Shown one piece after another: positions 37,076-52,392 of a DNA stretch of 64,000 bases. Source of the DNA: Proteiniphilum acetatigenes DSM 18083 (GTDB taxonomy: Bacteria; Bacteroidota; Bacteroidia; Bacteroidales; Dysgonomonadaceae). The notes under the pieces are model-generated. The model did not search any database and was not told where the DNA came from. It was given only the letters and a program-made list of their open reading frames with translations. The stretch covers positions 1 through 64,000 of the forward strand of contig NZ_KB905695.1 of assembly GCF_000380985.1 (NCBI RefSeq), given 5' to 3'. Numbering within the stretch: the first letter of the stretch is position 1; each line of letters starts with the position of its first letter. A program made the translations under genes and the position numbers.

Positions 37076-38674
37076 TTAAGATATACTGCCGATCCTGATG
37101 ATCATTTCTTCAAATTGATCACCCCCAGCCAGGGCTTTTCCCTTTACTTTGCTTTTATAGTTGTAAACAGTCTGCACCGAATAGTGCAGAAAGTCGGCGA
37201 TCTGCTTCATGTCTGTGATCCCTAATTTGATCAAAGCGAATATACGAAGTTCATTATTTAACTCCCCTCTTTCGGGATAATATTGTTCATCAGCCCTGAG
37301 CAGAGAGTTGAATTCCGAAACAAAGTTGGGGTAAAGTGCCAGAAAAGTTTTGTCGAAATTGGCATGTAATTCGGAGATATCTTTCTCCAATTCATCCGTG
37401 GATAATTTAAATAGATTGTTTATCTGTCCGGTTTTTATATTCAGGTTCACATTTTTCCGATACTTGTGAAGTTTATTGACATAGATAGAACACTGGTTCA
37501 TAAAGTAACCGATATAGTGTTCTTTCACGGTATTGGCTTCATCCAGCTTCCGGTTCAACTGCAGAAGATCTTCGTTCATTATTCTAAGCTCCTTCCGGGC
37601 TTTTGAAACGGCCTTGACCTGTAGATACAGATAAAATAAGGTAATGATCAGGACCAATGCAAATAGACTGGTAATGATTGAGAAGTTCTTTAAATTCTTC
37701 TGTTGAGAATAAATTTTTTGCAGGTAGGTGTCTTCAATGATGGGTTGTACCCGTGCAATAACGGAGTTTTTAAATCTTGCATTATAAAACAGCGCATCAT
37801 CCAAAGCTATCCTTATATATTCGTATGCCCTGTCAATATCCCCCATTTCATACAGGTTTATGGCTAAAGACAGCAGCGCTTCATTTTCTTTTACCGCCAA
37901 TTCTATGTCGGTGATCGCTGCGATAATCAGGTAATAATTTTCAAGTTCTTTTTTACCTGAGTGGCGGTATAATTTGGCGAGATTCATTGCAGCCATTGCA
38001 TAACCGTGTGTTTCAGGTGTCTGATTATGAAAGACGGGTAACAACAATTTTTCTGCCTCTGAAAACTGCCTTTCTTCCTGAAGCTTATGTGCTAATTCTT
38101 TTTTATATTCTTCGGATCCTTCGTCTAACAACCCCATTACCTTATCTCTATAGGATTCCTTTTGTTTCTCATATACCAGCGAGTGGTTTGCATCGGAAGT
38201 ATAGAATATAAGACTCTCAAAATATCGAATAGAATTCCAACAATACCATACCTTGTCTTTGTCTGACATGCTTTCATAATCAAGAGAGTCGAAAAGTTCA
38301 GAAGCTTCCAGAAACAAACCCGATAGTGAATAGATATAGGATAAGCGCAACAGATTCTCCACAATGATATCCTGATCATCCAGTCTGTTTGCAAGAGATA
38401 GATTCTCTTTGATATAAAACTCTGCAGAGTCACAAATGAAACTATTGTATTGTTCGATAATTTTCGAGTTGATATTGATTATATCGTTCGTATCGACCAG
38501 TAGTTGTTTTCTCTGCTTCAATTCCTGGATCTTATCTTCCCTTATCTTTGTGTATCCGGATCGTTCTGAAATAACCTTGTCCAGCACTTTCAGCAGGGAA
38601 TCGTTTTCACTTTCCACGCTGAAAATGGCCGTTGGAAAAATAATCAATAAAAGTATAACATACGCGAGCCTCAT
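37076..38674 (-). CDS. Membrane-anchored TPR regulator with C-terminal DNA-binding region (DUF6377-like)
   Basis: The 532-residue protein begins with a signal peptide (LAYVILLLIIFPTAIFS), continues with TPR-like helical repeats in the periplasm (residues 20-320), one membrane segment at about 330-350 (FSIITSLFALVLIITLFYLYL), a coiled-coil stretch (ELRIMNEDLLQLNRKLDE) and a cytoplasmic C-terminal region with a helix-turn-helix of the LuxR type (LGITDMKQIADFLHYSVQTVYNYKSKVKGKAL). This plan matches DUF6377 proteins and the SusR-type regulators of Bacteroidota, which sense oligosaccharide in the periplasm and activate the adjacent PUL. As PUL 2 has no sigma/FecR pair, this is its likely regulator. 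Confidence 0.82.
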   Translation of the reverse strand: MRLAYVILLLIIFPTAIFSVESENDSLLKVLDKVISERSGYTKIREDKIQELKQRKQLLVDTNDIININSKIIEQYNSFICDSAEFYIKENLSLANRLDDQDIIVENLLRLSYIYSLSGLFLEASELFDSLDYESMSDKDKVWYCWNSIRYFESLIFYTSDANHSLVYEKQKESYRDKVMGLLDEGSEEYKKELAHKLQEERQFSEAEKLLLPVFHNQTPETHGYAMAAMNLAKLYRHSGKKELENYYLIIAAITDIELAVKENEALLSLAINLYEMGDIDRAYEYIRIALDDALFYNARFKNSVIARVQPIIEDTYLQKIYSQQKNLKNFSIITSLFALVLIITLFYLYLQVKAVSKARKELRIMNEDLLQLNRKLDEANTVKEHYIGYFMNQCSIYVNKLHKYRKNVNLNIKTGQINNLFKLSTDELEKDISELHANFDKTFLALYPNFVSEFNSLLRADEQYYPERGELNNELRIFALIKLGITDMKQIADFLHYSVQTVYNYKSKVKGKALAGGDQFEEMIIRIGSIS

Positions 38675-38986
38675 AGTAAATAATCTCTCCGGTTGATCCA
38701 GTAATTTGCTTTTAAGAATTCATTCATGACCTTATCCTAGCGGTTGTAACCGTAATGTACAAATATATATATAATTTTGTGGTGTATTGCCATATTTAAC
38801 ATAATAATAAAGTTGTGTAGCTGATATACATCAATTTGTATGTCTTAATGATTTTTATATAGCTATAAGTCGAAAATACAGAGAAAAGATTCCTGAAACA
38901 GACACAAAAAATGTTTCAATCGATTGTAGATAAACCTAAAGAAAAGAAGAGATTAAAAATAACCGAAAAAGTCAATACAAAGAGGT
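38675..38986 (-). promoter_or_regulatory. Leader and probable promoter of the DUF6377-like regulator
   Basis: On the - strand TATATTTG lies at 38767-38760, about 86 bases before the regulator start, matching the -7 box; no clear TTTG is seen at the expected distance. Directly after it CGGTTGTAACCG at 38741-38752 forms a perfect five-pair hairpin at the predicted RNA start. The remaining part of this 312-bp gap, 38770-38986, is AT-rich with no gene or repeat that I can identify. Confidence 0.5.
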
Positions 38987-41275
38987 TTATTTTGATATTC
39001 TACCGTTCAAGATTGTAGATGTGAAAGAATATGGATTTTTCGCCAATTTTTCAAATTTCAAGTATTTCTTTTTTTGTTCATCGTTTAAACGGTTCGTTTT
39101 GAAATCGTTCTTAGCCCTGCTATACCAATCGTATAACATCTTTTCAAGACCTATGCTGCCTGAGGAAGGCATTCGTTGATTATCAGATAGAAAGTTAATA
39201 AGCATATTGTACTTACTGTTCCACTCATAGACTTTTTTTTCCGTATCAATATCTGCATATTGATCTTTTATTCTCTCTACTTCAGATTTTTGACCTTCCG
39301 TCAGTTGATCAAAATTAATGCATTGTAATCTCCACCATCGATACAGTGAAGTTTCATTTTGATCGGTTGAAGCGGAAAAAGGGAAATGCCAGTTCTGTGA
39401 GATGAACTTTTCCAAGTCAGCCAGTCTCTCATCAAATGGCTTGTTGGAAATACCAAGCGTCGCCGGGTCGCCCGTCTTGTCTGGATAGGTCTTATTGCTC
39501 AAACCGAAACACCCGTTCTTATATTGCTTGAAACGTTTCTTTGAGTCTTTGATCATCGATGTCCGGATGCTGTTGATATTTGTCTCAGGAAAATATTGCA
39601 AAACATGATCTGTTATTTCCCCGACTGCCCGTGGACTATCGTGTGCATTTAAAAATTCAATGATAGTTTCCCTGATGGTACCCGACTTGATATGTTTCCA
39701 TTCTTTTAGCATATACATGCTTTTTCGGCCTTTGTGGGTTATTAAATCGTGTTGGTATAAAAGAGGCCGAAGCTGTTTGGAGGAGGTATATTTATGTTCC
39801 GGGAGTATCTTTTTAAATTCTGTAAATATATCATCTATGTGCATGGGTGTCCCTTGCTGTTTCAATATTTCATATATCACATCGGAAGGTTGTTTGGGAA
39901 GAACAGGAGGGGGTGGAGTGATGACTTTTCCCGAGACGGTTGCAAGGCCGAACTCATGCTCAAGGATATCGGACGCAACCTTTATTACACCTTCCAGTAT
40001 TCCGTCCTTATATTTTTGCCATCCTGGCGAGCTTAATAAGTAGACTCCGAGGTGTGATATAAGGTCTATTCTACTAATTGACACAAGATGGTTTATATCA
40101 GTGATAAATCTGTTAAAATTGAAAGACTCTGCCAACCCTGCCGGAATCAATACACTGTTTTTCCATGTCTTATCATTTTCCCTGATAGCAAAGCTACCCA
40201 TATAGATATGTGTGGAATCGGTAAACAGAGAGAGTATCTTCAGGATAAAAGCCCGGGTGAAATGAATATTTTCCCGTTCAATCAATGCTGAGATGCGGTC
40301 ATCGTCCTGCCATATAATATCGTCCTCCTTTATTGAATGCTGATAAAAGGAACATTCTTCTTTCATTTGTTTAATAAAGGAATTATTGGGTGAAAAGAAG
40401 TTCCTGTATGTTTTATTTTTAATTTGATTGATCCGTTGACTTGATAGATTGTGTATTTTTCCTAATGAGTTGTTTGTTAATAGTTTATTGTTTTCGAGTA
40501 TGTGGTATGAATGAAGAAGGACATCAATTTCCCTCCTGTCGTTTGACCTGAGTTCTTTTTCGAGTATCCAAAACATGGGTATATGTCCCTGTTGTGTATA
40601 GTAATCATATACAAAATCCTCCTCAAACCATTTACCTTTTTCCAATATTAGCCTCTCCCTCGGAAAAGCATCCTCCGGTAAAAGTATAATATTTAAAAGT
40701 TCATTTTCGAACTTTCTTTTTAACGCTATGAGTTCAGGATATGCTTTCTTGCCTAAATTCCTGATATTCATAAGAACTCCGTCCCGCTCAATTAGGTAAT
40801 CATATATAAAATTCTCAAAATTGATTTTACCTAACCATCTGGCTGTCCGTTTAGAACAAGACGAAACAAGTTCATTATATTTTTTTTCAACTAAAATCTT
40901 TTTTAGGGGAGACAAGTAGTTAAATAATTCGGCAGGAGAAATAAGTTTATCATTGAGGGCATGGTGAAGATCATTCTCAATCAACTCTTTTACTTCTGAT
41001 TTTCTATCATATTCCGGCTCTTTTTTTTGATGGTCCCCAATTTGGGGTTCTTTAAGCTGAAAAAGAATGTCTTTACATAGTGTTTCTAATTCAAGCGAGG
41101 TCCTGTGGCCTACATTTCGAATTTCCATAAAAGACCCACCCTCTTCATAATAGGTAATAATATCATAGAGGGTGTATAGATCTATATAAAGACAACAATT
41201 GAGTGCGCGAACGGATAATTTTCCATTGTCATGAAGGTCGCGGATTGGGATATTCTTCAATGATTCTTTTAACAT
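38987..41275 (-). CDS. Multi-domain protein with RNA-polymerase-like modules (alpha-CTD x2, sigma4-like HTH, HARE-like, HA repeats)
   Basis: The 762-residue cytosolic protein has no signal or membrane segment. Residues 9-73 resemble an RNA polymerase alpha C-terminal domain (KLSVRALNCC and MEIRNVGHRTSLELE); residues 138-195 hold a second, weaker copy (GVLMNIRNLGKKAYPELIAL). Residues 265-293 look like sigma region 4 (NSLGKIHNLSSQRINQIKNK). After a 170-residue part that I do not recognise come two winged-helix units, the first HARE-HTH-like at about 470-535 (DVIYEILKQQGTPMHIDDIF). The C-terminus has two helicase-associated-type repeats (WHFPFSAST with LYRWW; RMPSSGSIGLEKMLYDWYS). No ATPase or nuclease motif is visible. 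It probably binds DNA and perhaps RNA polymerase. It stands alone between gaps of 312 and 283 bp, and its function is unknown. Confidence 0.75.
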   Translation of the reverse strand: MLKESLKNIPIRDLHDNGKLSVRALNCCLYIDLYTLYDIITYYEEGGSFMEIRNVGHRTSLELETLCKDILFQLKEPQIGDHQKKEPEYDRKSEVKELIENDLHHALNDKLISPAELFNYLSPLKKILVEKKYNELVSSCSKRTARWLGKINFENFIYDYLIERDGVLMNIRNLGKKAYPELIALKRKFENELLNIILLPEDAFPRERLILEKGKWFEEDFVYDYYTQQGHIPMFWILEKELRSNDRREIDVLLHSYHILENNKLLTNNSLGKIHNLSSQRINQIKNKTYRNFFSPNNSFIKQMKEECSFYQHSIKEDDIIWQDDDRISALIERENIHFTRAFILKILSLFTDSTHIYMGSFAIRENDKTWKNSVLIPAGLAESFNFNRFITDINHLVSISRIDLISHLGVYLLSSPGWQKYKDGILEGVIKVASDILEHEFGLATVSGKVITPPPPVLPKQPSDVIYEILKQQGTPMHIDDIFTEFKKILPEHKYTSSKQLRPLLYQHDLITHKGRKSMYMLKEWKHIKSGTIRETIIEFLNAHDSPRAVGEITDHVLQYFPETNINSIRTSMIKDSKKRFKQYKNGCFGLSNKTYPDKTGDPATLGISNKPFDERLADLEKFISQNWHFPFSASTDQNETSLYRWWRLQCINFDQLTEGQKSEVERIKDQYADIDTEKKVYEWNSKYNMLINFLSDNQRMPSSGSIGLEKMLYDWYSRAKNDFKTNRLNDEQKKKYLKFEKLAKNPYSFTSTILNGRISK

Positions 41276-41558
41276 AGTAAATCTTAAACGAGTAATAGGT
41301 TATACAAAATATGTAACTGTTATGTATTGATCCTCAAAGATAGATAAATAATGCTATAAATAAAAAAATCTGAAAATAGGAAATTTCTTCATATTCTTAT
41401 TTTAATTACTATTTTTGTATTACCTTGGGGAGTCGCCTTGATAAAACAGATTGAGTCTGTTGGTAAAATGAAAGTCATTAGTCCTCCGATAGGATGAATT
41501 TGGAAATGATGTATTGGGTATATAATAGCTATGTGTAAGCAATAACAAATTTATAGTA

Positions 41559-42173
41559 GTGAGTACAAAAATAAGGATAAATATACTGACGGTCTTCTTC
41601 TTCGTTCTCTCAGTTATTTTAGCGATCCTGCTGCTGGCAGGGAATAAAAGGGCTGAGAAAGAGAGAGGATACGACAGTTCATCGGTGATGAATCGTATTT
41701 CCTATATACAGGAGCTGGCATTGGTCAGGTATAACTATACGGGAGTGATCAGTTATAAAGACTACCGTAAGTTTTTAAATATCAATGTGCCGCTGACCGA
41801 CAAATATTTTTTACTGAAATATAACGGATATATTAAGGCCGGAGTGGATTTTAACCGGATAAATGTGACTGTAGATAACGACACTACTATTCATATCTCG
41901 ATTCCTAAACCTAAAATACTGGATACAGTGATTGATGAAAAATCAATACAGGTGTACAATGAAAGCGAGAATGCGTTTAATCCCATTAAAATATCGGATT
42001 ACAACGAGGCGATTTCACGGGAGAAAAATGTGATGATCCGTGATGCAGTTGAACAGGGTATCTACAGGCAAGCGACCGATGAAGCGAAGATTGCTATCAC
42101 TTCGCTTTTGAGAGAGATGGGTTTTAAAGATATCCATATTACAGAAGAACTGGTCATGCCACAACTGAACTAA
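41559..42173 (+). CDS. DUF4230-family membrane-anchored protein
   Basis: The 204-residue protein starts at a GTG, gives an N-terminal membrane anchor (INILTVFFFVLSVILAILLLA) and then the DUF4230 domain with LALVRYNYTGV, FLLKYNGYIKAGVDF, and the SIPKPKILDTVID segment. The domain occurs widely in Gram-negative and Gram-positive bacteria; its function is not known. It is 137 bp upstream of a second membrane protein, with a palindromic repeat between. An ATG alternative would remove much of the anchor, so the GTG is preferred. The preceding gap of 283 bp contains a small ACAGA/TCTGT hairpin near 41447 and nothing else that I can see. Confidence 0.75.
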   Translation: MSTKIRINILTVFFFVLSVILAILLLAGNKRAEKERGYDSSSVMNRISYIQELALVRYNYTGVISYKDYRKFLNINVPLTDKYFLLKYNGYIKAGVDFNRINVTVDNDTTIHISIPKPKILDTVIDEKSIQVYNESENAFNPIKISDYNEAISREKNVMIRDAVEQGIYRQATDEAKIAITSLLREMGFKDIHITEELVMPQLN

Positions 42174-44492: not shown

Positions 44493-45044
44493 ATGAAAAA
44501 GCAAAAAGAAGATCAAGGTATTTTTACAGAATATTTTAAAGCTTTTTACCTGCAATATGCCGGAGATCTGGTCTTTTTTGCCCGGCAGTTTGTAGATGCC
44601 CATGCAGCGGAGGATATTGTCCACGATATTTTCCTTAAGATATGGGATAAAAGGTCGACGATCATTGTGGAAGAAAATATCAGAAATTACCTTTTGTCTA
44701 TGGTTCAACATGCCTGTTACGATTATTTGAAACATCAACAGGTGGAGGACACTTTTATGAATAAAGCTGTTCAACAGATTAAGCTGGACGAACTAAAATA
44801 TTACGAATCGCCGAAAGACTATTTATGGGATAAAGACAAAATAGAAGCTGTTTATGCTTCTATTGAAAAACTACCGTCCAAACGCAGGGAGATTTTTAAG
44901 AAGGCCTATCTCGAAGAAAAAAAGCATACCGATATTGCCGAAGAATTGGATATTTCGGTCAGAACGGTAGAGACACATGTCTATAAAGCCCTGAAATTTC
45001 TTCGGGATAGTCTGATTACTTTTCTCTTTCTTTCCTTTTTTTGA
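44493..45044 (+). CDS. ECF RNA polymerase sigma factor, FecI-like (PUL 3)
   Basis: The 183-residue sigma factor has region 2 (LVFFARQFVDAHAAEDIVHDIFLKIWDKR) seen as its two helices AAEDIVHDIFLKIW and IRNYLLSMVQHACYDYLKH, and region 4 with LPSKRREIFKKAYLE, HTDIAEELDIS and the recognition helix VRTVETHVYKALKFLR. It resembles the PUL 1 sigma in plan but not closely in sequence. The partner FecR is encoded on the same strand 930 bp downstream, on the far side of an opposite-strand gene. It should direct RNA polymerase to the susC operon of PUL 3 once released. Confidence 0.92.
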   Translation: MKKQKEDQGIFTEYFKAFYLQYAGDLVFFARQFVDAHAAEDIVHDIFLKIWDKRSTIIVEENIRNYLLSMVQHACYDYLKHQQVEDTFMNKAVQQIKLDELKYYESPKDYLWDKDKIEAVYASIEKLPSKRREIFKKAYLEEKKHTDIAEELDISVRTVETHVYKALKFLRDSLITFLFLSFF

Positions 45045-45108
45045 TATAAAATTTTTACTTTTCACACGATTATTTTATTTTTTATATTTTTGATATGCTC
45101 GTTTCGTA

Positions 45109-45651
45109 TTAATATACAGTGATCTTAATCCCAGGTGTATGACCGGAGATATCGGTAAGTTTACCGTTGAAAAAACTATATTCGAAACGGGTGTTGCCGA
45201 TACGTGATATTTTTCCCGTATGGAAATCATATTCTATCGGGTAATCGCCGATCTTCTTGACTTTGTCGGTATGAAAATCATATTCGATAGTGTATCCGCC
45301 GATTTTTTTCACCCGCTCGGTGTGAAAGTCGTACTCGATTTCGTGGCGACCTATTCGTTTTAATTTCCCATTCATTTTATCATACAGCCTTTGCCCGTTC
45401 GTCAAAATAGAAAAATCTTCTAATTGACCGTTGTTTAAGAAAATCATAATTTCTTCTCCTATGAGGATACGGGCTTTTTTCCCGCTTTCTCCCGTCGCCT
45501 GCGGATGGTGTTCGGGGATATGCAGATATTCCCATGTCCCGTCCCTGTGAAGGATGACCCTTCTGCCATCTTCGGTTACGGCATATTGCTGTGCGTATGT
45601 CGATGGAATGTAAACGATGGTTGATAAGACTAAAAGTAATAATAGTTTCAT
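45109..45651 (-). CDS. Exported protein with EYDFHT tandem repeats
   Basis: The 180-residue protein has a signal peptide (LLLLLVLSTIVYIPSTYAQQ) and a short N-terminal part with VILHRDGTWEYL, found in other exported proteins of this phylum. From about residue 90 it consists of four to five repeats of 16-17 residues built on KKIGGYTIEYDFHTDKV, with variants GRHEIEYDFHTERV, GDYPIEYDFHTGKI and GNTRFEYSFFNGKL. Such repeats should form a stacked beta arrangement like those of beta-roll or MORN-like proteins. Function is unknown. It sits on the - strand between the PUL 3 sigma and anti-sigma genes, with AT-rich gaps on both sides. Confidence 0.75.
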   Translation of the reverse strand: MKLLLLLVLSTIVYIPSTYAQQYAVTEDGRRVILHRDGTWEYLHIPEHHPQATGESGKKARILIGEEIMIFLNNGQLEDFSILTNGQRLYDKMNGKLKRIGRHEIEYDFHTERVKKIGGYTIEYDFHTDKVKKIGDYPIEYDFHTGKISRIGNTRFEYSFFNGKLTDISGHTPGIKITVY

Positions 45652-45975
45652 AATTCAAAAATACAGTATAATATTGAGAAAATAAAGGGATTCCCCCAAT
45701 TATTGTAAAAATCGATTAATGACTAATATATATATTATACACTCTCATTATTTATTTTTTATATAAAAATTTTTCAAAAATAATACGTAGTTCACTTTTA
45801 ACAATCGTATATATAATATAATCAGAAATACTCTAAATTTGATGATACAATTCAATTACTTAGATTATCAATCTGTTTTGGCAAAGCAACTGACGATAAA
45901 TTGAAACCAGGAAACTTGTTGATTTCTGGTGAGTTATGACGAAAGAACAAAGAGTTCGACAAAAAGATATAACCA
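45652..45975. promoter_or_regulatory. AT-rich divergent gap upstream of fecR (PUL 3)
   Basis: The 324 bases between the repeat protein and fecR are strongly AT-rich, with runs such as TATATATATTATA near 45730. TAAATTTG at 45834-45841 matches the -7 box on the + strand, about 135 bases before fecR, but no TTTG is seen at the expected distance. No gene or repeat was recognised. Confidence 0.35.
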
Positions 45976-47001
45976 ATGAATGAAGACGTTCCGGGAATAG
46001 TAGTACGTGTGCTTCAAGGGAACCAGACTGAGGATGATATGCAGGTTTTCCTGCAATGGTATCATACTTCGCAGGAAAATAAAGATAATTTCTTCCAATT
46101 AAAACATATTTATGAGCTTCGTAAAGGAGTGAAAAAACCTGATGTAATAGAAATGGAGGCAAGTTGGGATCGTTTATGGGAAAAACTTAAGAAACAATCC
46201 GCAACACATATTTCATCATCAGAAACAAATCAGGGTAAGCGTTATATCAGCATCGTACGCTATGCAGGAGTGGCTGCGGTTGCTATTTTACTGATGGTTG
46301 TTGGGGTCCGTTTCTTTTACAAGGGGCATGATCAGATAGTATGGGTTGAGGTCAGAACCGGAGCCAAAAGTGAGCCACAAACCATCCGGTTATCTGATGG
46401 ATCCATCGTTCGGTTGAATGCTTCTTCCCTGTTTCGGTATCCGGAAAAGTTTGGTAGAGGAGAAAGAGAAGTATATCTGGATGGAGAAGCATATTTCAGT
46501 ATAACGAAAGATGACCGGCATGATTTTATCGTTCATACCGATAAACAGCGGATCAATGTGTTGGGTACCGAATTTAATGTTTTTGGCTATTCTTCCGACC
46601 CCTATACAATTACAACTCTGGTGAACGGAAAAGTGAAATTAGGGACATATGATAACGAAGGCAACCTGAAAAATGAAGTTATGATGTATCCGAATCAGCA
46701 GATCTATTTTGACAAGCAGTCTTATCAAACGACTCTGTCGGAAGTAAATACATTGGACGCTACATCATGGATGAAAGGTATTTATTCTTTCAGAGACGCT
46801 CCATTAGAGGAAATAGCCCGTCGTTTGGAGAAGATATACGGTGTTACCATTATTATTCCGGATGAAGTGGATAGGAAGGAAGAATATACGGGAAAGTTCT
46901 TTGCCCATCAGACGAAGGAAGAGATTGCAAATGTCCTTAATTTCAAAAGACAATTCCGGTTACAGTTCAGTGATGATACGATCTTTCTTCAGAAAAGATG
47001 A
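45976..47001 (+). CDS. FecR-type anti-sigma factor (PUL 3)
   Basis: The 341-residue protein has a cytoplasmic N-terminal region of about 85 residues (LQGNQTEDDMQVFLQWYHTS), one membrane segment near residues 93-112 (VAAVAILLMVVGVRFFY), the FecR domain (VEVRTGAKSEPQTIRLSDGS, VYLDGEAYFSITKDD, VLGTEFNVFGY, TTLVNGKVKLG) and a C-terminal DUF4974-like part (FRDAPLEEIARRLEKIYGVTI). It should restrain the sigma factor encoded at 44493-45044 and respond to the STN domain of the SusC downstream. It is separated from susC by a 276-bp leader holding the hairpin element. Confidence 0.93.
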   Translation: MNEDVPGIVVRVLQGNQTEDDMQVFLQWYHTSQENKDNFFQLKHIYELRKGVKKPDVIEMEASWDRLWEKLKKQSATHISSSETNQGKRYISIVRYAGVAAVAILLMVVGVRFFYKGHDQIVWVEVRTGAKSEPQTIRLSDGSIVRLNASSLFRYPEKFGRGEREVYLDGEAYFSITKDDRHDFIVHTDKQRINVLGTEFNVFGYSSDPYTITTLVNGKVKLGTYDNEGNLKNEVMMYPNQQIYFDKQSYQTTLSEVNTLDATSWMKGIYSFRDAPLEEIARRLEKIYGVTIIIPDEVDRKEEYTGKFFAHQTKEEIANVLNFKRQFRLQFSDDTIFLQKR

Positions 47002-47177
47002 TCATCATAATTCAAAATAGATTAATAACTTATAAAAAACAAATGCCTATGAGAGAACCCTGAAATAATAAATAAAGCCAGGAGACTGCGCCAACAGTAT
47101 CCCGGCCCATAATTCGTTTTCAATTAATTAAATCACCTCTATTGTCTCACAAGCAACAGTAGAATACTATTTTTTAA

Positions 47178-47267
47178 TTCATCAAAAACGCACTATTTCT
47201 TGCCATGGCAGAGCTCAAGCAAGCTTGGCTCTGCTCATTTGGCTTAACGAAATAGTTCATCAAAAAC
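47178..47267. repeat. Inverted-repeat element with hairpin, flanked by 12-bp direct repeats (copy B)
   Basis: TTCATCAAAAAC occurs at 47178-47189 and again at 47256-47267. Between them lies a unit with terminal inverted repeats ACTATTTC (47192-47199) and GAAATAGT (47249-47256). Its centre folds as GCAGAG, core CTCAAGCAAGCTTGG, CTCTGC (47208-47234). The outer parts CTTGCCATGG and ATTTGGCTTAAC recur, inverted, in the PUL 1 element at 19577-19664; the core recurs in the 79-bp repeats. It ends ten bases before the susC start codon. Upstream in the same leader a second imperfect GC-rich hairpin lies at about 47089-47117. Confidence 0.7.
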
Positions 47268-47277
47268 ATGCAAAGAT

Positions 47278-50200
47278 ATGAATAAATTAACAGATTCCCT
47301 ATGGAGAAAAAGATCTTTAACCGTGATGTTCATTTTTGTCTTTCTGATTACCGGCAATTTTAATGGTTTTGCCGGTGATTATGTCCAAAATGAAAAACTA
47401 TCGGTAAAGATGCAGCAGGCAACCTTTGACGAGATTGTTTCTGCTATTGAGAATCAGTCCGATTACGTGTTTTTTTATAAAAGCAGTGATGTGGACCGCA
47501 ACATTCACTATGATGTAGACCTGGAAAACCGGAATATCCATGAGATACTGGATCAGTTAATGGAAAATTCTTCACTTACCTATAGAATATCCGGAAAGTA
47601 TATTTTTATTGATAAAAAAGAGATAAGAAAGGATAACGAGGCGGCGAATAAGGTGAATACTGTACTCCAGCAAAGAAAGCAGGTCACCGGAACAGTTACT
47701 GATGAACAGGGTGAAGCTATAATTGGAGCCAACATCGTTGAACAGGGTACAAATAACGGTACAGTTACTGATATAGACGGACGCTTTTCGTTACTGGTAG
47801 AGAATGAAAATGCTACCATCCGTATCTCTTATATCGGATATATAGAGCAAGAAATCAGTGTCGCCGGTAGAAGTTCCATTGAAGTAACATTGCAGGAAGA
47901 CACACAAGCACTGGACGAGCTGGTGGTTGTTGGTTACGGATCTATACGTAAGTCTGATGTGACGGGCTCTATCTCTACAGCCAAAGGTTCTGACATTATT
48001 AAGAGTCAATCATTCAATGCTTTGGAAGGATTGAAAGGAAAAGCTGCAGGTGTGAATATCTTTTCCAACACGGGACAACCAGGAGGTGAGATGCGTGTTA
48101 TCATCCGCGGTATTTCTACGATCAATGCTTCGGCTGATCCTTTATATGTGGTAGATGGTGTGGTTATGTCTAATTTCCAGTTCCTTAATCCAAATGATAT
48201 CGAGTCGATTGAAGTGTTGAAAGATGCTTCGTCCGCAGCTATATATGGTGCTCGTGGAGCTAATGGTGTTATACTTGTAACCACTAAGCGTGGAGGAAAT
48301 ACCGGATCGAGTGCACGTATCTCTTATGATGGTTCCTTGTCTGTCAGTACAATGGCAAGATACATGGACGTGATGGACTCTAATGAATGGATGGCTGCAT
48401 TCAAGCAGGGATTAGAAAATGCCAATGCTTGGCAGGGCCGGAATTTTGATACAGACTTGTCGAAGATTTTTACAGATCCACGTCTATTCAATTCAGATGG
48501 ATCGCCTAAATACAATACAGATTGGCAGCGAGAATCATCCCGTACGGCTATTTCTCATAACCATCAGCTTAGTATTCAGCGTGGTGGTGGGGCCTCGTCA
48601 GTTGGAGCATTTTTAAATTATACTGATCAACAGGGGATTCTTCACAATTCTTATATGAAACGTCTGAATGCTAAACTGGCGTATGATGATAAACCTACCA
48701 AATGGTTATCTACCGGCGTCAATTTGTTAGTAAACCATACATGGGCAAATAGAACTTCAGACAATCCTTATGGGCAGGGTGCTGCGCGTACCATGGTGGA
48801 AGCATCACCTTTCATCCCCGTGATGCTGGATGGGGTATATATGCAATCGAATGATGTGCAGACGACATCCATCTTAAGAGATAAAGATAATCCAAATAGT
48901 GGTTTGCAAGGTTTTAGTCCTGAGGGAGTTGGTAATCCTGTTGAGTTGCTTAAACGAATGGTCGCCAACCAATATAGAACACAGGTTTTTGGTAATGCAG
49001 GTTTGACTTTTCATCTGACAAAAGATCTTGAATTGAAAACGCAATTTGGTATTGACTATCAGAATAACCGTAATGCAAATTATACACCGTTTATGCCACG
49101 CCCATTGATCAATCAAAGTGCGAATGATGGAGCCGCTTCCGCGAATACCTCAAGTTCAATTTATTGGCAAGAAGAGACATTCCTGACCTATAATAAGGAT
49201 ATTGGTAAGCATTATATAAATGCTATGGCGGGTGTTTCATGGATAGAAAGTACTTATACTTACTTTAGTGCTTCTGATAGGGTATTTAGTGATGATTTCT
49301 ATGGCTATTATAATTTGGGATCCGGAACAGAGCGTCCCTCTGTTGATAGTGATCACGACAGATGGGCTATGAATTCCTATTTCTTACGTGGAGTATATTC
49401 TTATGATAGTAAGTATATGGCTACTATAACAAGCCGTTGGGACGGTTCTTCGAAATTTGGGGCAAATAACAAATACTCTTTCTTCCCTTCTATTGGTTTG
49501 GGGTGGATGATGTCTAACGAAGATTTTCTTAAGGATCACCCGGTGATTAGTAGATTAAAACCTCACACTTCTTATGGAATTACTGGTAACTCCGAGATAG
49601 GAACTTATTCATCGTTAGCCACTATCGGTCAGTCGACAACAATCATTGGAGAAGAGTTGAAAACAGTATCCTATATGTCACGCATGCCTAATCCTGATCT
49701 GAAATGGGAGAGGACTAGTCAATGGGATGTTGGGGTAGAGCTGGGACTGTTCAATAACCGAGTCAGCTTGGAGGCTTCCTATTACTATAAATATACTACT
49801 GACCTTTTGTTGAGCCGCCCATTGCCGAGATCCACCGGTTTTTCATCTATCACAGACAATATTGGTGAGGTATCCAATCGCGGATTAGATATATTAATTA
49901 ATGCATATCCGATTCAGACGCATGATTTCCAGTGGAACAGTACCCTTAACTTAAGTTTCAATAAAAACCGTGTAGAGAAATTAGATGAGAGTTCTGCGGT
50001 TGATCAGATTACAGGTAAACGCCAGATACTGCTTGATGGTTTTGTCGGTTATGAAATGTTGATCCGTGAAGGAGAGGAACTTTCTACATTCTACGGCTAT
50101 AAACGTGCCGGTATTTATGATGGTGTTCCCGGTAACTGGGATCCTGAAACAATGAATGTGCCTTCTACCATTGGAGAAAAGGTTACTTATAAACAACGTG

Positions 50201-50739
50201 AAATCCTTGGTAATGGTTTGCCCGATTGGATGGGGTCATTTATCAATACTTTCAATTATAAGGGATTTGACCTGACTGTAGATTTGCAATTTTCATTTGG
50301 AGCAGAAGTTATGCAGGAATATTTCCACTCTGCTGAAGGGCGTTTCCTTACCAGCGGTTTAGATCGTCTCTGGAAAGATGCATGGCATCCTACAAACAAT
50401 CCTAATGGAACAGCACAGGCCATACGTTTGGCAAACTTTGGGATGGGAAATAATGCCAATGCTGATGATACTTGGGTAGCCGATGGCTCCTATCTTCGTG
50501 GTAATCTGATTCAGTTGGGTTACACATTCAATCCGACAATTCTTCGTAAAGCAGGTTTTTCTGCGTTACGCCTGTACGGAAGTGTGAACAACGCTTTCCT
50601 GATTACTTCGTCCGACTATCTGGGATACGATCCTGATAACTCCTCCCGTTTGGGTGGTAATAAATGGGGGACCAACCGTCAGTTCTTTACCTATCCTCGT
50701 GCAAGAACATTTACTTTTGGTCTTAATGTATCATTTTAA
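47278..50739 (+). CDS. SusC/RagA-type TonB-dependent transporter with STN domain (PUL 3)
   Basis: The 1153-residue protein has a signal peptide, an STN domain at about residues 38-105 (FDEIVSAIENQSDYVFFYKSS), a carboxypeptidase-regulatory-like domain (VTGTVTDEQGEAIIGANIV and TDIDGRFSLL), the TonB plug (VVVGYGSIRKSDVTGSI, GEMRVIIRGISTIN, GANGVILVTTKRGG) and a beta-barrel ending TFTFGLNVSF. The STN domain fits the sigma/FecR pair upstream. The susD gene begins 33 bp after its stop codon, so both are one operon. Its substrate is unknown; the GH2 and GH105 downstream suggest a galactose- and uronate-containing oligosaccharide. Confidence 0.96.
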   Translation: MNKLTDSLWRKRSLTVMFIFVFLITGNFNGFAGDYVQNEKLSVKMQQATFDEIVSAIENQSDYVFFYKSSDVDRNIHYDVDLENRNIHEILDQLMENSSLTYRISGKYIFIDKKEIRKDNEAANKVNTVLQQRKQVTGTVTDEQGEAIIGANIVEQGTNNGTVTDIDGRFSLLVENENATIRISYIGYIEQEISVAGRSSIEVTLQEDTQALDELVVVGYGSIRKSDVTGSISTAKGSDIIKSQSFNALEGLKGKAAGVNIFSNTGQPGGEMRVIIRGISTINASADPLYVVDGVVMSNFQFLNPNDIESIEVLKDASSAAIYGARGANGVILVTTKRGGNTGSSARISYDGSLSVSTMARYMDVMDSNEWMAAFKQGLENANAWQGRNFDTDLSKIFTDPRLFNSDGSPKYNTDWQRESSRTAISHNHQLSIQRGGGASSVGAFLNYTDQQGILHNSYMKRLNAKLAYDDKPTKWLSTGVNLLVNHTWANRTSDNPYGQGAARTMVEASPFIPVMLDGVYMQSNDVQTTSILRDKDNPNSGLQGFSPEGVGNPVELLKRMVANQYRTQVFGNAGLTFHLTKDLELKTQFGIDYQNNRNANYTPFMPRPLINQSANDGAASANTSSSIYWQEETFLTYNKDIGKHYINAMAGVSWIESTYTYFSASDRVFSDDFYGYYNLGSGTERPSVDSDHDRWAMNSYFLRGVYSYDSKYMATITSRWDGSSKFGANNKYSFFPSIGLGWMMSNEDFLKDHPVISRLKPHTSYGITGNSEIGTYSSLATIGQSTTIIGEELKTVSYMSRMPNPDLKWERTSQWDVGVELGLFNNRVSLEASYYYKYTTDLLLSRPLPRSTGFSSITDNIGEVSNRGLDILINAYPIQTHDFQWNSTLNLSFNKNRVEKLDESSAVDQITGKRQILLDGFVGYEMLIREGEELSTFYGYKRAGIYDGVPGNWDPETMNVPSTIGEKVTYKQREILGNGLPDWMGSFINTFNYKGFDLTVDLQFSFGAEVMQEYFHSAEGRFLTSGLDRLWKDAWHPTNNPNGTAQAIRLANFGMGNNANADDTWVADGSYLRGNLIQLGYTFNPTILRKAGFSALRLYGSVNNAFLITSSDYLGYDPDNSSRLGGNKWGTNRQFFTYPRARTFTFGLNVSF

Positions 50740-50772
50740 TTCATGGTTATAAAATTAAAAAAATATTATCCT

Positions 50773-52392
50773 ATGAAATTACATAAAAAAAATATATATG
50801 TCCTTTGCATGGTTGCAGTATCATTGCTGATCAGTTCATGCAACAGCTTCTTGGAAGAAAATCCGCTGGATGTAAAAGATGCCGGTCAATTCTGGCGAAC
50901 TGAAGCAGATGCCCAAACCGGGGTTAATGCACTCTATTTCGGTGGAGTTCCTTATTTGCATAATATCGATGTGGATGGTGGATGGACACCCAAAGCCACT
51001 ATGTGGGGGGGAGTTGCGTCCGGGTTATTTGTTGATAAACGTAAAGACCGTACATTTACTAACGCATCAGAAGGTGGCAACTTTAATGTGGAATCATTTG
51101 ATGCCACTTCACAGAAGATATGGACCGAGTTTTATATTGGCATCATGCGTGCCAATTTTGTGATTGCCAATATTCCGAATATGACCGATGTGTTGAGCAG
51201 TGAGCAAATCAGCAATTTTGTTGCACAAGGTAAGTTTTTCCGTGCATATGCCTATTTCTATCTAGTGAAAGAATTTGGAGATGTTCCCTATATTGATTTT
51301 CCCTATACTTCGTTAGACGGTATCTATCAGGAACGTGTTCCTTCAGCACAGATATACCAAAATATTGAAGCAGATTTGTTAAGTGTTATGGATGCATTGC
51401 CTAATGTTGCGTTTTACGACAATGGAGGTTATGCGACCAGGCCTATGGCACAAACATTACTGGCACAAGTGTATTTGCAATGGGCTGGTGCTCCTGTCAA
51501 TGGTGGAAATGAATATTATACGAAAGCTGCCAATATGGCTATTAATGTGGTGAATGGAGGACAACATGCCCTAATCCATCCTAATGGAACTACCTCCGAC
51601 CTCAATTCTGCATACAACATCATTAAAACCACAAAATCATCAAATGAGATCATTTATGCTAAAGAGTATAACCAGACCAGTTTGAATGTGGGTAACTCTT
51701 ATGCAGTACGTTCAATTGGAACGGATGCTTTCCAATGGGGTATTTTCAAACCCGGAGGAGATGTTCTCTACAACGCTTATTTGCCTTGTGACATGATTAT
51801 CAATAGTTATCATTCCTCAGATATTCGTGGTATGGAGAAGCAATTTTTCTTTAGGGAATACACCTTTAGTTTAGATGGGGAGACTGTTACCCGCACATTG
51901 GATAATGTCGGAAATTGGGCATGGTTTGATGAAGGATCTTTGATTAACGGTAGAAATGGTGATTATAACATGCCTAGCTTCCGTTATGCAGAGGTGTTAT
52001 TGATTGCGGCTGAGGGTCTTGCAAGGACTGGGAATGATGCAGAAGCTAGAGGGTATCTCAATCAAGTGCGGAAACGTGCAGGATTGGCTGATGAGACTGC
52101 AAGTGGGGATGCATTGGTACAGGCTATTCTGACTGAACGTCTCCATGAGTTCCCATTGGAATTTAAGATATGGGATGACATTCGTCGTACCCGCTTATAT
52201 CCCGAAGCAGATGGAATGCAGTCCGGTAAACTGAGATGGGTTCCGTTGGCATCTGCAGCGATTCAAAATAAACCTGATGGAAGTACCCGAGTTGGTGCTA
52301 TTCCGGAGCATGCGCTGTTATGGCCCATTCCGTTATCTGAGATGCAAGCTAACCCTTCTCTGGAAGGACATCAGAATCCAGGATGGAACTAA
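50773..52392 (+). CDS. SusD/RagB-type glycan-binding lipoprotein (PUL 3)
   Basis: The start at 50773 gives MKLHKKNIYVLCMVAVSLLISSC, read as KLHKKNIYVLCMVAVSL before the ISSC lipobox; the longer frame to 50743 adds ten residues before the signal. The 539-residue product has NSFLEENPLDVKDAGQFW, the helical repeats (FVAQGKFFRAYAYFYLVKEF), the FRYAEVLLIAAEGLART block, LNQVRKRAGL, ERLHEFPLEFKIWDDIRRTR and the C-terminal LWPIPLSEMQANPSLEGHQN-PGWN. It pairs with SusC. A remnant of another SusD lies just behind the terminator downstream. Confidence 0.95.
   Translation: MKLHKKNIYVLCMVAVSLLISSCNSFLEENPLDVKDAGQFWRTEADAQTGVNALYFGGVPYLHNIDVDGGWTPKATMWGGVASGLFVDKRKDRTFTNASEGGNFNVESFDATSQKIWTEFYIGIMRANFVIANIPNMTDVLSSEQISNFVAQGKFFRAYAYFYLVKEFGDVPYIDFPYTSLDGIYQERVPSAQIYQNIEADLLSVMDALPNVAFYDNGGYATRPMAQTLLAQVYLQWAGAPVNGGNEYYTKAANMAINVVNGGQHALIHPNGTTSDLNSAYNIIKTTKSSNEIIYAKEYNQTSLNVGNSYAVRSIGTDAFQWGIFKPGGDVLYNAYLPCDMIINSYHSSDIRGMEKQFFFREYTFSLDGETVTRTLDNVGNWAWFDEGSLINGRNGDYNMPSFRYAEVLLIAAEGLARTGNDAEARGYLNQVRKRAGLADETASGDALVQAILTERLHEFPLEFKIWDDIRRTRLYPEADGMQSGKLRWVPLASAAIQNKPDGSTRVGAIPEHALLWPIPLSEMQANPSLEGHQNPGWN

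What the first reader, a model, noticed from the sequence alone, without database searches (positions are those of the whole stretch)
38987..41275. A single protein built from RNA-polymerase-holoenzyme-like parts
Seen in the sequence: an alpha-CTD-like helix-hairpin module at residues 9-73 with LSVRALN and the IRNVG turn, a second at about 138-195 with IRNLGKKAYPEL, a sigma-region-4-like segment ending SSQRINQIKNK, two winged-helix units of which one resembles HARE-HTH (as in RNA polymerase delta), and two C-terminal helicase-associated-type repeats. Known: alpha-CTD binds UP elements and activators; sigma region 4 reads the -35 box; HARE-HTH occurs in chromatin and polymerase-linked proteins. 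Inference: the protein may sit on promoter DNA as an alternative or competing specificity factor, or may guard against foreign DNA. The combination with HA repeats, normally attached to helicases, and the absence of any catalytic motif make it the least ordinary gene here.
Basis: partly seen in the sequence, partly recalled or inferred. Interest (0 to 1): 0.72.

Follow-up and report, generated by a model that had tools for sequence, protein, structure and literature searches.

The report
DNA reader swapped into defence operons
The gene makes a protein assembled from DNA-gripping pieces resembling those of the RNA-making machine; here it is a lone gene that comes and goes between close relatives, but its relatives often sit inside bacterial anti-invader gene clusters, in one type standing where a DNA-modifying enzyme would be.

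Summary
In detail: a 762-aa minus-strand ORF (38987-41275) carries an alpha-CTD module with nearly all its DNA-contact residues, a weaker second one, a sigma-region-4-like segment, two tandem HARE-like winged helices and HA repeats (HARE and HA sub-threshold here). In this copy and two genus relatives the sigma-4 helix has lost key -35-reading residues, so the promoter-factor reading is only partly supported.

What is new is context. Of 22 relatives with flanks, 9 lie in defence loci: two after dndC-dndD-dndE, two behind type I HsdR-YgjP genes, five heading a compact operon: X - 60-65 aa protein - DndD - DndE/HerA. Six other DndE/HerA loci have DndC before DndD and no X; the five X operons have no DndC in the fetched flanks, but their small protein resembles DndC's C-terminal tail. 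X thus seems to have taken the sulfurtransferase's place, keeping its tail.

The window copy is an orphan: a ~2.6-kb cassette, absent from a relative with 94% identical flanks, mosaic and fast-evolving; its genome shows no DndD above cut-off. Best reading: a defence-associated multi-domain DNA reader, here without its partners.

The parts
38987..41275 (-). Gene X, 762 aa: two alpha-CTD-like modules, sigma-4-like HTH, unknown middle region, two HARE-like winged helices, HA repeats
41057..41251 (-). Alpha-CTD module 1 (residues 9-73); keeps R265/N268/C269/N294/G296/E302 equivalents, K298 as R, S299 as T (E. coli numbering recalled)
   Evidence: PF03118 over cut-off; residue table; hhalign vs own RpoA
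40676..40900 (-). Alpha-CTD-like module 2 (residues 126-200), weaker
   Evidence: hhalign score 27.4 vs own RpoA, 100 shuffles max 14.8; vs module 1 probability 82
40376..40570 (-). Sigma-70 region-4-like HTH (residues 236-300) with changed recognition-helix residues
39941..40378 (-). Conserved middle region of unknown fold (residues 300-445); the own-genome paralogue ends just after it
   Evidence: alignment A5; paralogue match covers residues 1-445
39695..39892 (-). HARE-like winged helix 1 (residues 462-527)
   Evidence: PF05066 14.8 bits, sub-threshold; RNAP delta TIGR04567 E 0.0028, 17.8 bits vs cut-off 42; A6
39482..39694 (-). HARE-like winged helix 2 (residues 528-598), KxGTIR-type motif
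   Evidence: A7; duplicate of unit 1, hhalign E 1.2e-8
39026..39454 (-). Two HA (helicase-associated) repeats (residues 608-750)
   Evidence: PF03457 16.8 bits here, 41.6 bits in L021
38807..41390 (.). Cassette absent from relative G063: flanks 93.8% (306 bp) and 94.1% (508 bp) identical, nothing between
38867..39046 (+). Remnant of the start of an S1-domain gene that is full-length beside X in G088 and G063; overlaps the last ~20 codons of X in antisense
   Evidence: PF00575 28 vs cut-off 22 bits in the G088 gene
41335..41342 (-). TATCTTTG, fits the Bacteroidetes -7 consensus TAnnTTTG (recalled), 67 nt before the X start; also present in the G063 and G088 copies by eye; low weight
37076..38674 (-). 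Left flank gene, DUF6377, not part of the cassette
41559..42173 (+). Right flank gene, DUF4230, not part of the cassette

Best explanation
X is a multi-domain DNA reader of anti-invader systems with no enzyme of its own that I could detect. It re-uses RNA-polymerase-type DNA grips (alpha-CTD helix-hairpin-helix, sigma-4 HTH) plus tandem HARE-like winged helices to recognise a DNA feature (sequence, promoter-like shape or modification state) and lends that recognition to a DNA-handling motor or nuclease: DndD with DndE/HerA, a PbeA-type helicase-nuclease, or HsdR. In the clearest form, X - small protein - DndD - DndE/HerA, X stands where DndC (the sulfurtransferase) stands in sister operons, and a 60-65-residue protein related to DndC's C-terminal tail remains, probably as the adaptor to DndD; such systems would then not phosphorothioate DNA. 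The window copy is an orphan member on a gain/loss cassette: it probably still binds DNA through its alpha-CTD and winged-helix modules, alone or with partners elsewhere in the genome, and probably not as a -35 reader. SHOWN: domain homology, operon contexts, no DndC in the fetched flanks of the X operons, tail homology, empty site, mosaicism, no DndD above cut-off in the own genome. INFERRED: DNA binding, the adaptor role, defence function, loss of phosphorothioation.
For: Context: 9 of 22 relatives with flanks in defence loci; partners identified as DndC, DndD, DndE, PbeA, DndE+HerA, HsdR, HsdS, YgjP. Reciprocal test: a DndE/HerA profile found 8 of 395 class and 3 of 395 phylum genomes, 9 different ones; 3 are X operons; in the other 6 DndC precedes DndD (6 of 6) and X is absent (0 of 6). 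With the named loci L051 and L052 there are 5 X operons; DndC found in 0 of 5. X-type DndDs form one side of a branch, 100/100, in a 13-row tree. The X-DndD gap holds a 60-65 aa ORF in 5 of 5, overlapping the DndD start in 5 of 5 and the end of X in 4 of 5. It resembles DndC residues about 372-444: hhalign probability 92.4, score 45.9, 100 column-permuted controls max 19.4; the only non-self hits with E<1e-4 among 474 ORFs are four DndC tails. DNA-contact residues kept in the alpha-CTD. Defence-like evolution: cassette presence/absence; dN/dS about 0.26 for residues 1-463 and 0.16 for the C-terminal part, against 0.05-0.14 for six neighbours (window vs G088); mosaic with codons 426-635 at background and most of 1-425 far above it.
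Against: 11 of 22 loci, the window's included, show no defence partner in the flanks (ORF lists read by eye, blastp with seven partner queries), and 2 more are cut by contig ends. No structure could be predicted. HARE and HA are below cut-off in the window protein. On the X tree (19 of the 22 loci) contexts are mixed and the orphan label needs at least 4 changes, so a defence role may not hold for every member. Absence of DndC was checked in the flanks only, not genome-wide. The reciprocal profile was built from X-type members and used E<=1e-60, so its sample is biased and small. The small-protein profile finds the DndC tails of L019 and L020 only at E 0.1-0.3 and lists none for L121 and L126. 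The two RM cases come from one genus, the two dndCDE cases from the window's family. A hidden enzyme in residues 300-445 is not excluded.
Confidence: 0.6

Rival explanations
1. X is a transcription regulator or RNA-polymerase competitor: it occupies UP-element and -35-like DNA, or imitates the delta subunit, and blocks or redirects initiation. This is close to the first reader's view and to a prediction by Aravind and Iyer 2012 (recalled) for HARE-HTH proteins fused to alpha-CTD and sigma-region parts.
For: Alpha-CTD keeps its minor-groove residues; sigma-4 is canonical in most family members and in the own-genome paralogue; the first winged helix weakly matches the RNAP delta model (E 0.0028, 17.8 bits vs cut-off 42).
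Against: The window copy and its G063 and G088 relatives lack the R584/E585/R588 equivalents; no sigma region 2 or alpha-NTD matched; gene overlap with the small protein and DndD, or a place between DndE and PbeA, fits a complex subunit at least as well as a free regulator.
Confidence: 0.25
2. The window copy is a decaying relic of a defence module, its partners lost and its function gone.
For: S1 neighbour reduced to a stub and X's last codons run over it in antisense; orphan; no DndD above cut-off in the genome; the G088 copy is split into two reading frames.
Against: Open frame of 762 codons, 99.9% identical in G053; dN/dS about 0.26 against G063 and 0.26 (N-terminal) or 0.16 (C-terminal) against G088, i.e. 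purifying selection.
Confidence: 0.1
3. Ordinary DNA-binding protein whose proximity to defence genes is coincidental (shared genomic islands).
For: Half the loci show no defence genes; recombinases lie near L021 and L022.
Against: Same gene order with overlapping genes in 5 of 5 X-DndD-DndE/HerA loci, from at least four families; same HsdR-YgjP-X order twice, though within one genus; patchy spread, 6 of 395 genomes in each of two samples.
Confidence: 0.05

Closest known systems
Dnd phosphorothioation system with DndE fused to HerA/FtsK (PMC10853773, section 22 read)
   Same: DndD-type ABC ATPase next to a DndE-HerA fusion; same gene order downstream
   Different: X plus a DndC-tail-like small protein stands in place of DndC in 5 of 5 X operons; the sections and passages I read do not mention this arrangement
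PbeABCD / CxC ABC-ATPase systems (PMC10853773, section 16 read)
   Same: In L019 X is directly upstream of a PbeA-type HKD nuclease-SF2 helicase, after dndCDE
   Different: PbeABCD as described there has a small disordered protein, and no alpha-CTD/sigma-4/HARE protein is mentioned
PglW of type 2 BREX (PMC12839542, passages only)
   Same: Described there as having an alpha-CTD-like helical domain followed by three winged-helix modules, in a defence protein
   Different: PglW carries a kinase and other enzymatic parts; none was found in X
HARE-HTH proteins fused to alpha-CTD HhH and sigma region 3/4 HTH (Aravind and Iyer 2012, PMC3272235; not held, recalled)
   Same: Probably the same architecture class
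   Different: The recalled prediction was inhibition of RNA polymerase binding; the Dnd/RM operon link is what this report adds, as far as I could check
MzaA, sigma-like protein of the MZA anti-phage system (NCBIfam NF041931)
   Same: Sigma-4 stretch of L053 and L045 matches it weakly (E 2.1e-4)
   Different: About 20 bits against a cut-off of 800; not a member, a parallel only

Membership tests
RNA polymerase alpha CTD fold (PF03118) | Score over the curated cut-off | tested here: met
   24.5 vs 23.8 bits, residues 8-63
RNA polymerase alpha CTD fold (PF03118) | DNA-contact (265) determinant residues (list recalled) | tested here: met
   R, N, C, N, G, E identical; K298 as R, S299 as T; K297 is H
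RNA polymerase alpha subunit | N-terminal assembly domain | tested here: not met
   No such Pfam match at E<=5 in 762 aa
Sigma-70 factor | Region 4 HTH | tested here: inconclusive
   Family yes (12 of 15 members; profile E 2.8e-7); window protein alone has no PF04545 match and lacks R584/E585/R588 equivalents
Sigma-70 factor | Region 2 (core and -10 binding) | tested here: not met
   No match in the window protein; not among the 24 families listed for the 15 members
HARE-HTH (PF05066) | Score over cut-off | tested here: not met
   14.8 vs 25.9 bits; 4 of 15 members match at E<=0.1, best E 0.0013
HA repeat (PF03457) | Score over cut-off | tested here: inconclusive
   16.8 vs 28.4 bits in the window protein; 41.6 in L021; 3 of 15 members match at E<=0.1
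Dnd phosphorothioation system | DndC sulfurtransferase next to DndD/DndE | tested here: not met
   Window: no DndD over cut-off in the genome, best E 0.0016, no DndE/HerA at E<=1e-60. X operons: DndC in 0 of 5 sets of flanks. Met beside the X genes of L019 and L020
Dnd phosphorothioation system | Phosphorothioate in DNA | not testable with these tools
   Needs chemistry
DndC | Homology to PP-loop DndC | tested here: not met
   The DndC query hits no X protein at E<=1e-4; only the separate small protein resembles DndC's tail
PADLOC-listed defence proteins | Match to any model | tested here: not met
   0 families at E<=0.01 for P0001 and for the L021 X

The most novel reading that the evidence does not exclude
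X - DndC-tail - DndD - DndE/HerA is a descendant of the phosphorothioation machinery that dropped sulfur chemistry: the catalytic part of DndC was replaced by a reader built from RNA-polymerase-type promoter-recognition modules, so the DndD/DndE-HerA motor is aimed by promoter-like or modification features of invading DNA. X is a portable reader also used by type I restriction and Pbe-like nucleases, and free copies such as the window's spread as cassettes.
Probability: 0.45. Interest if true: 0.82.

Novelty: new variant of a known kind. Interest (0 to 1): 0.62.

Why it matters
A published survey reports DndC in 70% of Dnd-bearing taxa and asks whether systems without it use another modification or mechanism (PMC10853773, passages of section 12, section 24 read). 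The X operons give a concrete, testable answer for one group: the modifier's place is taken by a DNA reader while its tail stays. If right, it shows how a modification system becomes something else by swapping one subunit, and that RNA-polymerase-type DNA grips are exchangeable parts across several defence kinds.

Tried and rejected
Viral-contig scans with three X queries (short-pattern method): no relatives. Phage records with the window protein: no match. Plasmids: one Segatella protein sharing the winged-helix part and two Arthrobacter-group HA proteins. X as a phage or plasmid gene: no support. Regulatory DNA between X and DndD: set aside, the gap is a gene. The DNA upstream of X as a repeated element of the genome: other matches are short and weak (best 79% over 42 bases, E 0.014); but part of it (window 41330-41443, spanning the cassette's right edge) matches at 85% the DNA before G063's X at its other site, which is unexplained. 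PDB searches with the winged-helix profiles: nothing convincing.

Slips corrected: one search used the wrong ORF as own sigma factor (redone); a name clash emptied L021 and L022, and one search found the small ORF only in L051 (both redone).

Rows dropped before counting: the 22 loci leave out L099 (a hit to one alpha-CTD-like stretch only) and the distant Segatella plasmid protein (L054). L029 (G053), a near-identical copy of the window's gene, is counted. The tree leaves out L020, L029 and L048. The wide genome samples scored only the best two or three first-look candidates per genome, so their counts are lower bounds.

Full report
OBSERVATION. The ORF at 38987-41275 is on the minus strand, 762 aa, ATG start. 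Residues 8-63 match the RNA polymerase alpha CTD over Pfam's cut-off (24.5 vs 23.8 bits). A profile of the family's first module aligns with the same genome's RpoA tail at hhalign score 55.2, against at most 16.5 for 100 shuffles; a second module (126-200) scores 27.4 against at most 14.8; the sigma-4 profile scores 54.8 on the genome's own sigma factor against at most 14.7. A profile of eight relatives finds SigA structures (best E 2.8e-7) and RpoA (best E 5.7e-6) in the PDB. The two winged-helix units are duplicates of each other, HARE-like but below Pfam's cut-off. The HA repeats are below cut-off here and clear in relative L021.

RESIDUES. The first alpha-CTD keeps the equivalents of E. 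coli R265, N268, C269, N294, G296 and E302, with R for K298 and T for S299 (residue list recalled). The sigma-4 recognition helix is changed here: SQRINQ, and AQRIYQ (G063) and TQRVNQ (G088), where 8 of the 15 aligned sequences, the own-genome paralogue among them, have RERVRQ and 12 of 15 keep the E585 equivalent. So a DNA-gripping role is plausible, reading a -35 box less so.

FAMILY. Relatives are rare: 7 of 101 genomes of the family, 6 of 395 of the class, 6 of 395 of the phylum by profile, the own genome counted in each; 2 of 92 in the family of G696 (both known before) and 5 of 45 in the genus of G153. The class and phylum figures are lower bounds (few candidates scored per genome). The own genome has a 461-aa paralogue ending after the middle region, beside a carA-like ORF.

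CONTEXT. I read the flanks of 22 X loci, the window included. Nine are defence loci. L019 and L020 (both in the window's family): dndC-dndD-dndE-X, in L019 followed by a PbeA-type nuclease-helicase. L021, L022, L045, L051, L052: X - small ORF - DndD - DndE/HerA. L023 and L097 (one genus): HsdS, HsdR, YgjP, X. Eleven show no defence partner (window, L026-L029, L046-L049, L053, L098; by eye and by blastp with seven partner queries; L048 has a HerA-like ORF about 5 kb away) and two are cut by contig ends (L024, L025). Partners were identified by profile libraries and blastp.

RECIPROCAL TEST. A DndE/HerA profile built from four X-type members found 8 of 395 class genomes and 3 of 395 phylum genomes at E<=1e-60, nine different genomes. 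Three are X operons (G193, G347, G696), and these are sources of three of the profile's four rows. The other six have DndC before DndD (6 of 6; in L125 with a gap of about 285 bases) and no X (0 of 6). None of the five X operons has DndC in the fetched flanks (about 18-20 kb each). X-type DndDs form one side of a branch with support 100/100 (13 rows).

THE SMALL PROTEIN. The stretch between X and DndD is conserved because it encodes a 60-65 aa protein that overlaps the DndD start in 5 of 5 and the end of X in 4 of 5 loci. Differences by codon position (1, 2, 3) are 15/12/30, 11/14/26 and 28/16/32 in three pairs. Its profile hits the C-terminal tails of four DndCs at E 2.8e-6 to 1.5e-5 among 474 ORFs, those of L019 and L020 at E 0.1-0.3, and lists none for L121 and L126; against the eight-DndC profile it scores 45.9, probability 92.4, against at most 19.4 for 100 permuted controls. 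I infer that DndC's sulfurtransferase part was replaced by X while its tail, perhaps a docking piece, stayed.

THE WINDOW COPY. G063, a close relative (dS 0.13-0.25 over 8 neighbouring genes), has the same locus without X: flanks match at about 94% on both sides of an insert of 2,584 bases (window 38807-41390). G063 carries X on another contig, beside an S1-domain gene; G088 has both genes at the window's site; in the window only a stub of the S1 gene is left, and X's last codons run over it in antisense. A 117-base piece spanning the cassette's right edge also resembles the DNA before G063's X at its other site (85%), so the edge may mark a past recombination; unexplained. Between window and G063, X codons 426-635 are 89-97% identical in DNA, like the neighbours, while 1-425 are mostly 61-76% (one 30-codon piece 86%) and the end 67-82%: a mosaic. 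Against G088, X has dN/dS 0.167/0.64 in its N-terminal part and 0.19/1.19 in its C-terminal part; six neighbours have dN 0.036-0.075 and dS 0.36-1.28. The genome has no DndD over the cut-off.

MECHANISM. Best supported: a DNA reader for several defence machines (0.6). The X tree (19 rows) mixes contexts, so partners seem to be gained and lost. Rivals: transcription regulator or polymerase competitor (0.25), relic (0.1), coincidence (0.05).

LITERATURE. PMC10853773: sections 14, 16, 17, 22 and 24 read, other passages seen; it describes DndE-HerA fusions, HARE-HTH fused to nucleases in Dnd loci, a sigma-type HTH insert in some DndH, and the open question of DndC-less systems. PMC12839542: passages on PglW and BrxL. 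Aravind and Iyer 2012: not held, recalled. I found no report of X in DndC's place in the searches (open-licence papers only, listings capped, supplements not readable), so priority is not established.

Noticed in passing
L049:8525-11096 and L053:3052-9452: Two orphan X genes lie close to carA/carB-like ORFs (by eye): the own-genome paralogue directly before carA, and the Prevotellaceae one as second gene after carB.
   Followed up: no
L028:6538-8759: The G088 copy of X is split into two adjoining frames at the junction between the core and the winged-helix half; draft assembly, so real or sequencing error is open.
   Followed up: partly
L028:5521-6522 and L027:11280-12257: An S1-domain gene lies tail to tail with X in two genus relatives; possible partner, stub in the window.
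   Followed up: partly
window 41330-41443: DNA across the cassette's right edge resembles (85%) the DNA before G063's X at a different site; 54 bases of it also match the empty site (88.9%).
   Followed up: partly
L052:13994-14857: 288-aa ORF downstream of the X operon, no family match; by eye a possible PD-(D/E)XK-like nuclease.
   Followed up: partly
L045:9645-10319: PLD-domain protein (PF13091) just upstream of X; possible effector nuclease.
   Followed up: partly
L051:12839-13960: The DndE/HerA ORF is shortened (374 aa) in this MAG.
   Followed up: no
L048:16439-19999: Large ORF with a HerA-like match (E 2e-13) about 5 kb from a partial X that lacks the alpha-CTD.
   Followed up: no
L054:6474-8435 (Segatella copri plasmid NZ_CP085933.1): Distant 653-aa relative with the two winged-helix units and, by eye, a different helix-hairpin-helix start.
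   Followed up: partly
window 44493-52392: By eye a sigma factor, anti-sigma, SusC and SusD-like gene set typical of polysaccharide loci.
   Followed up: no
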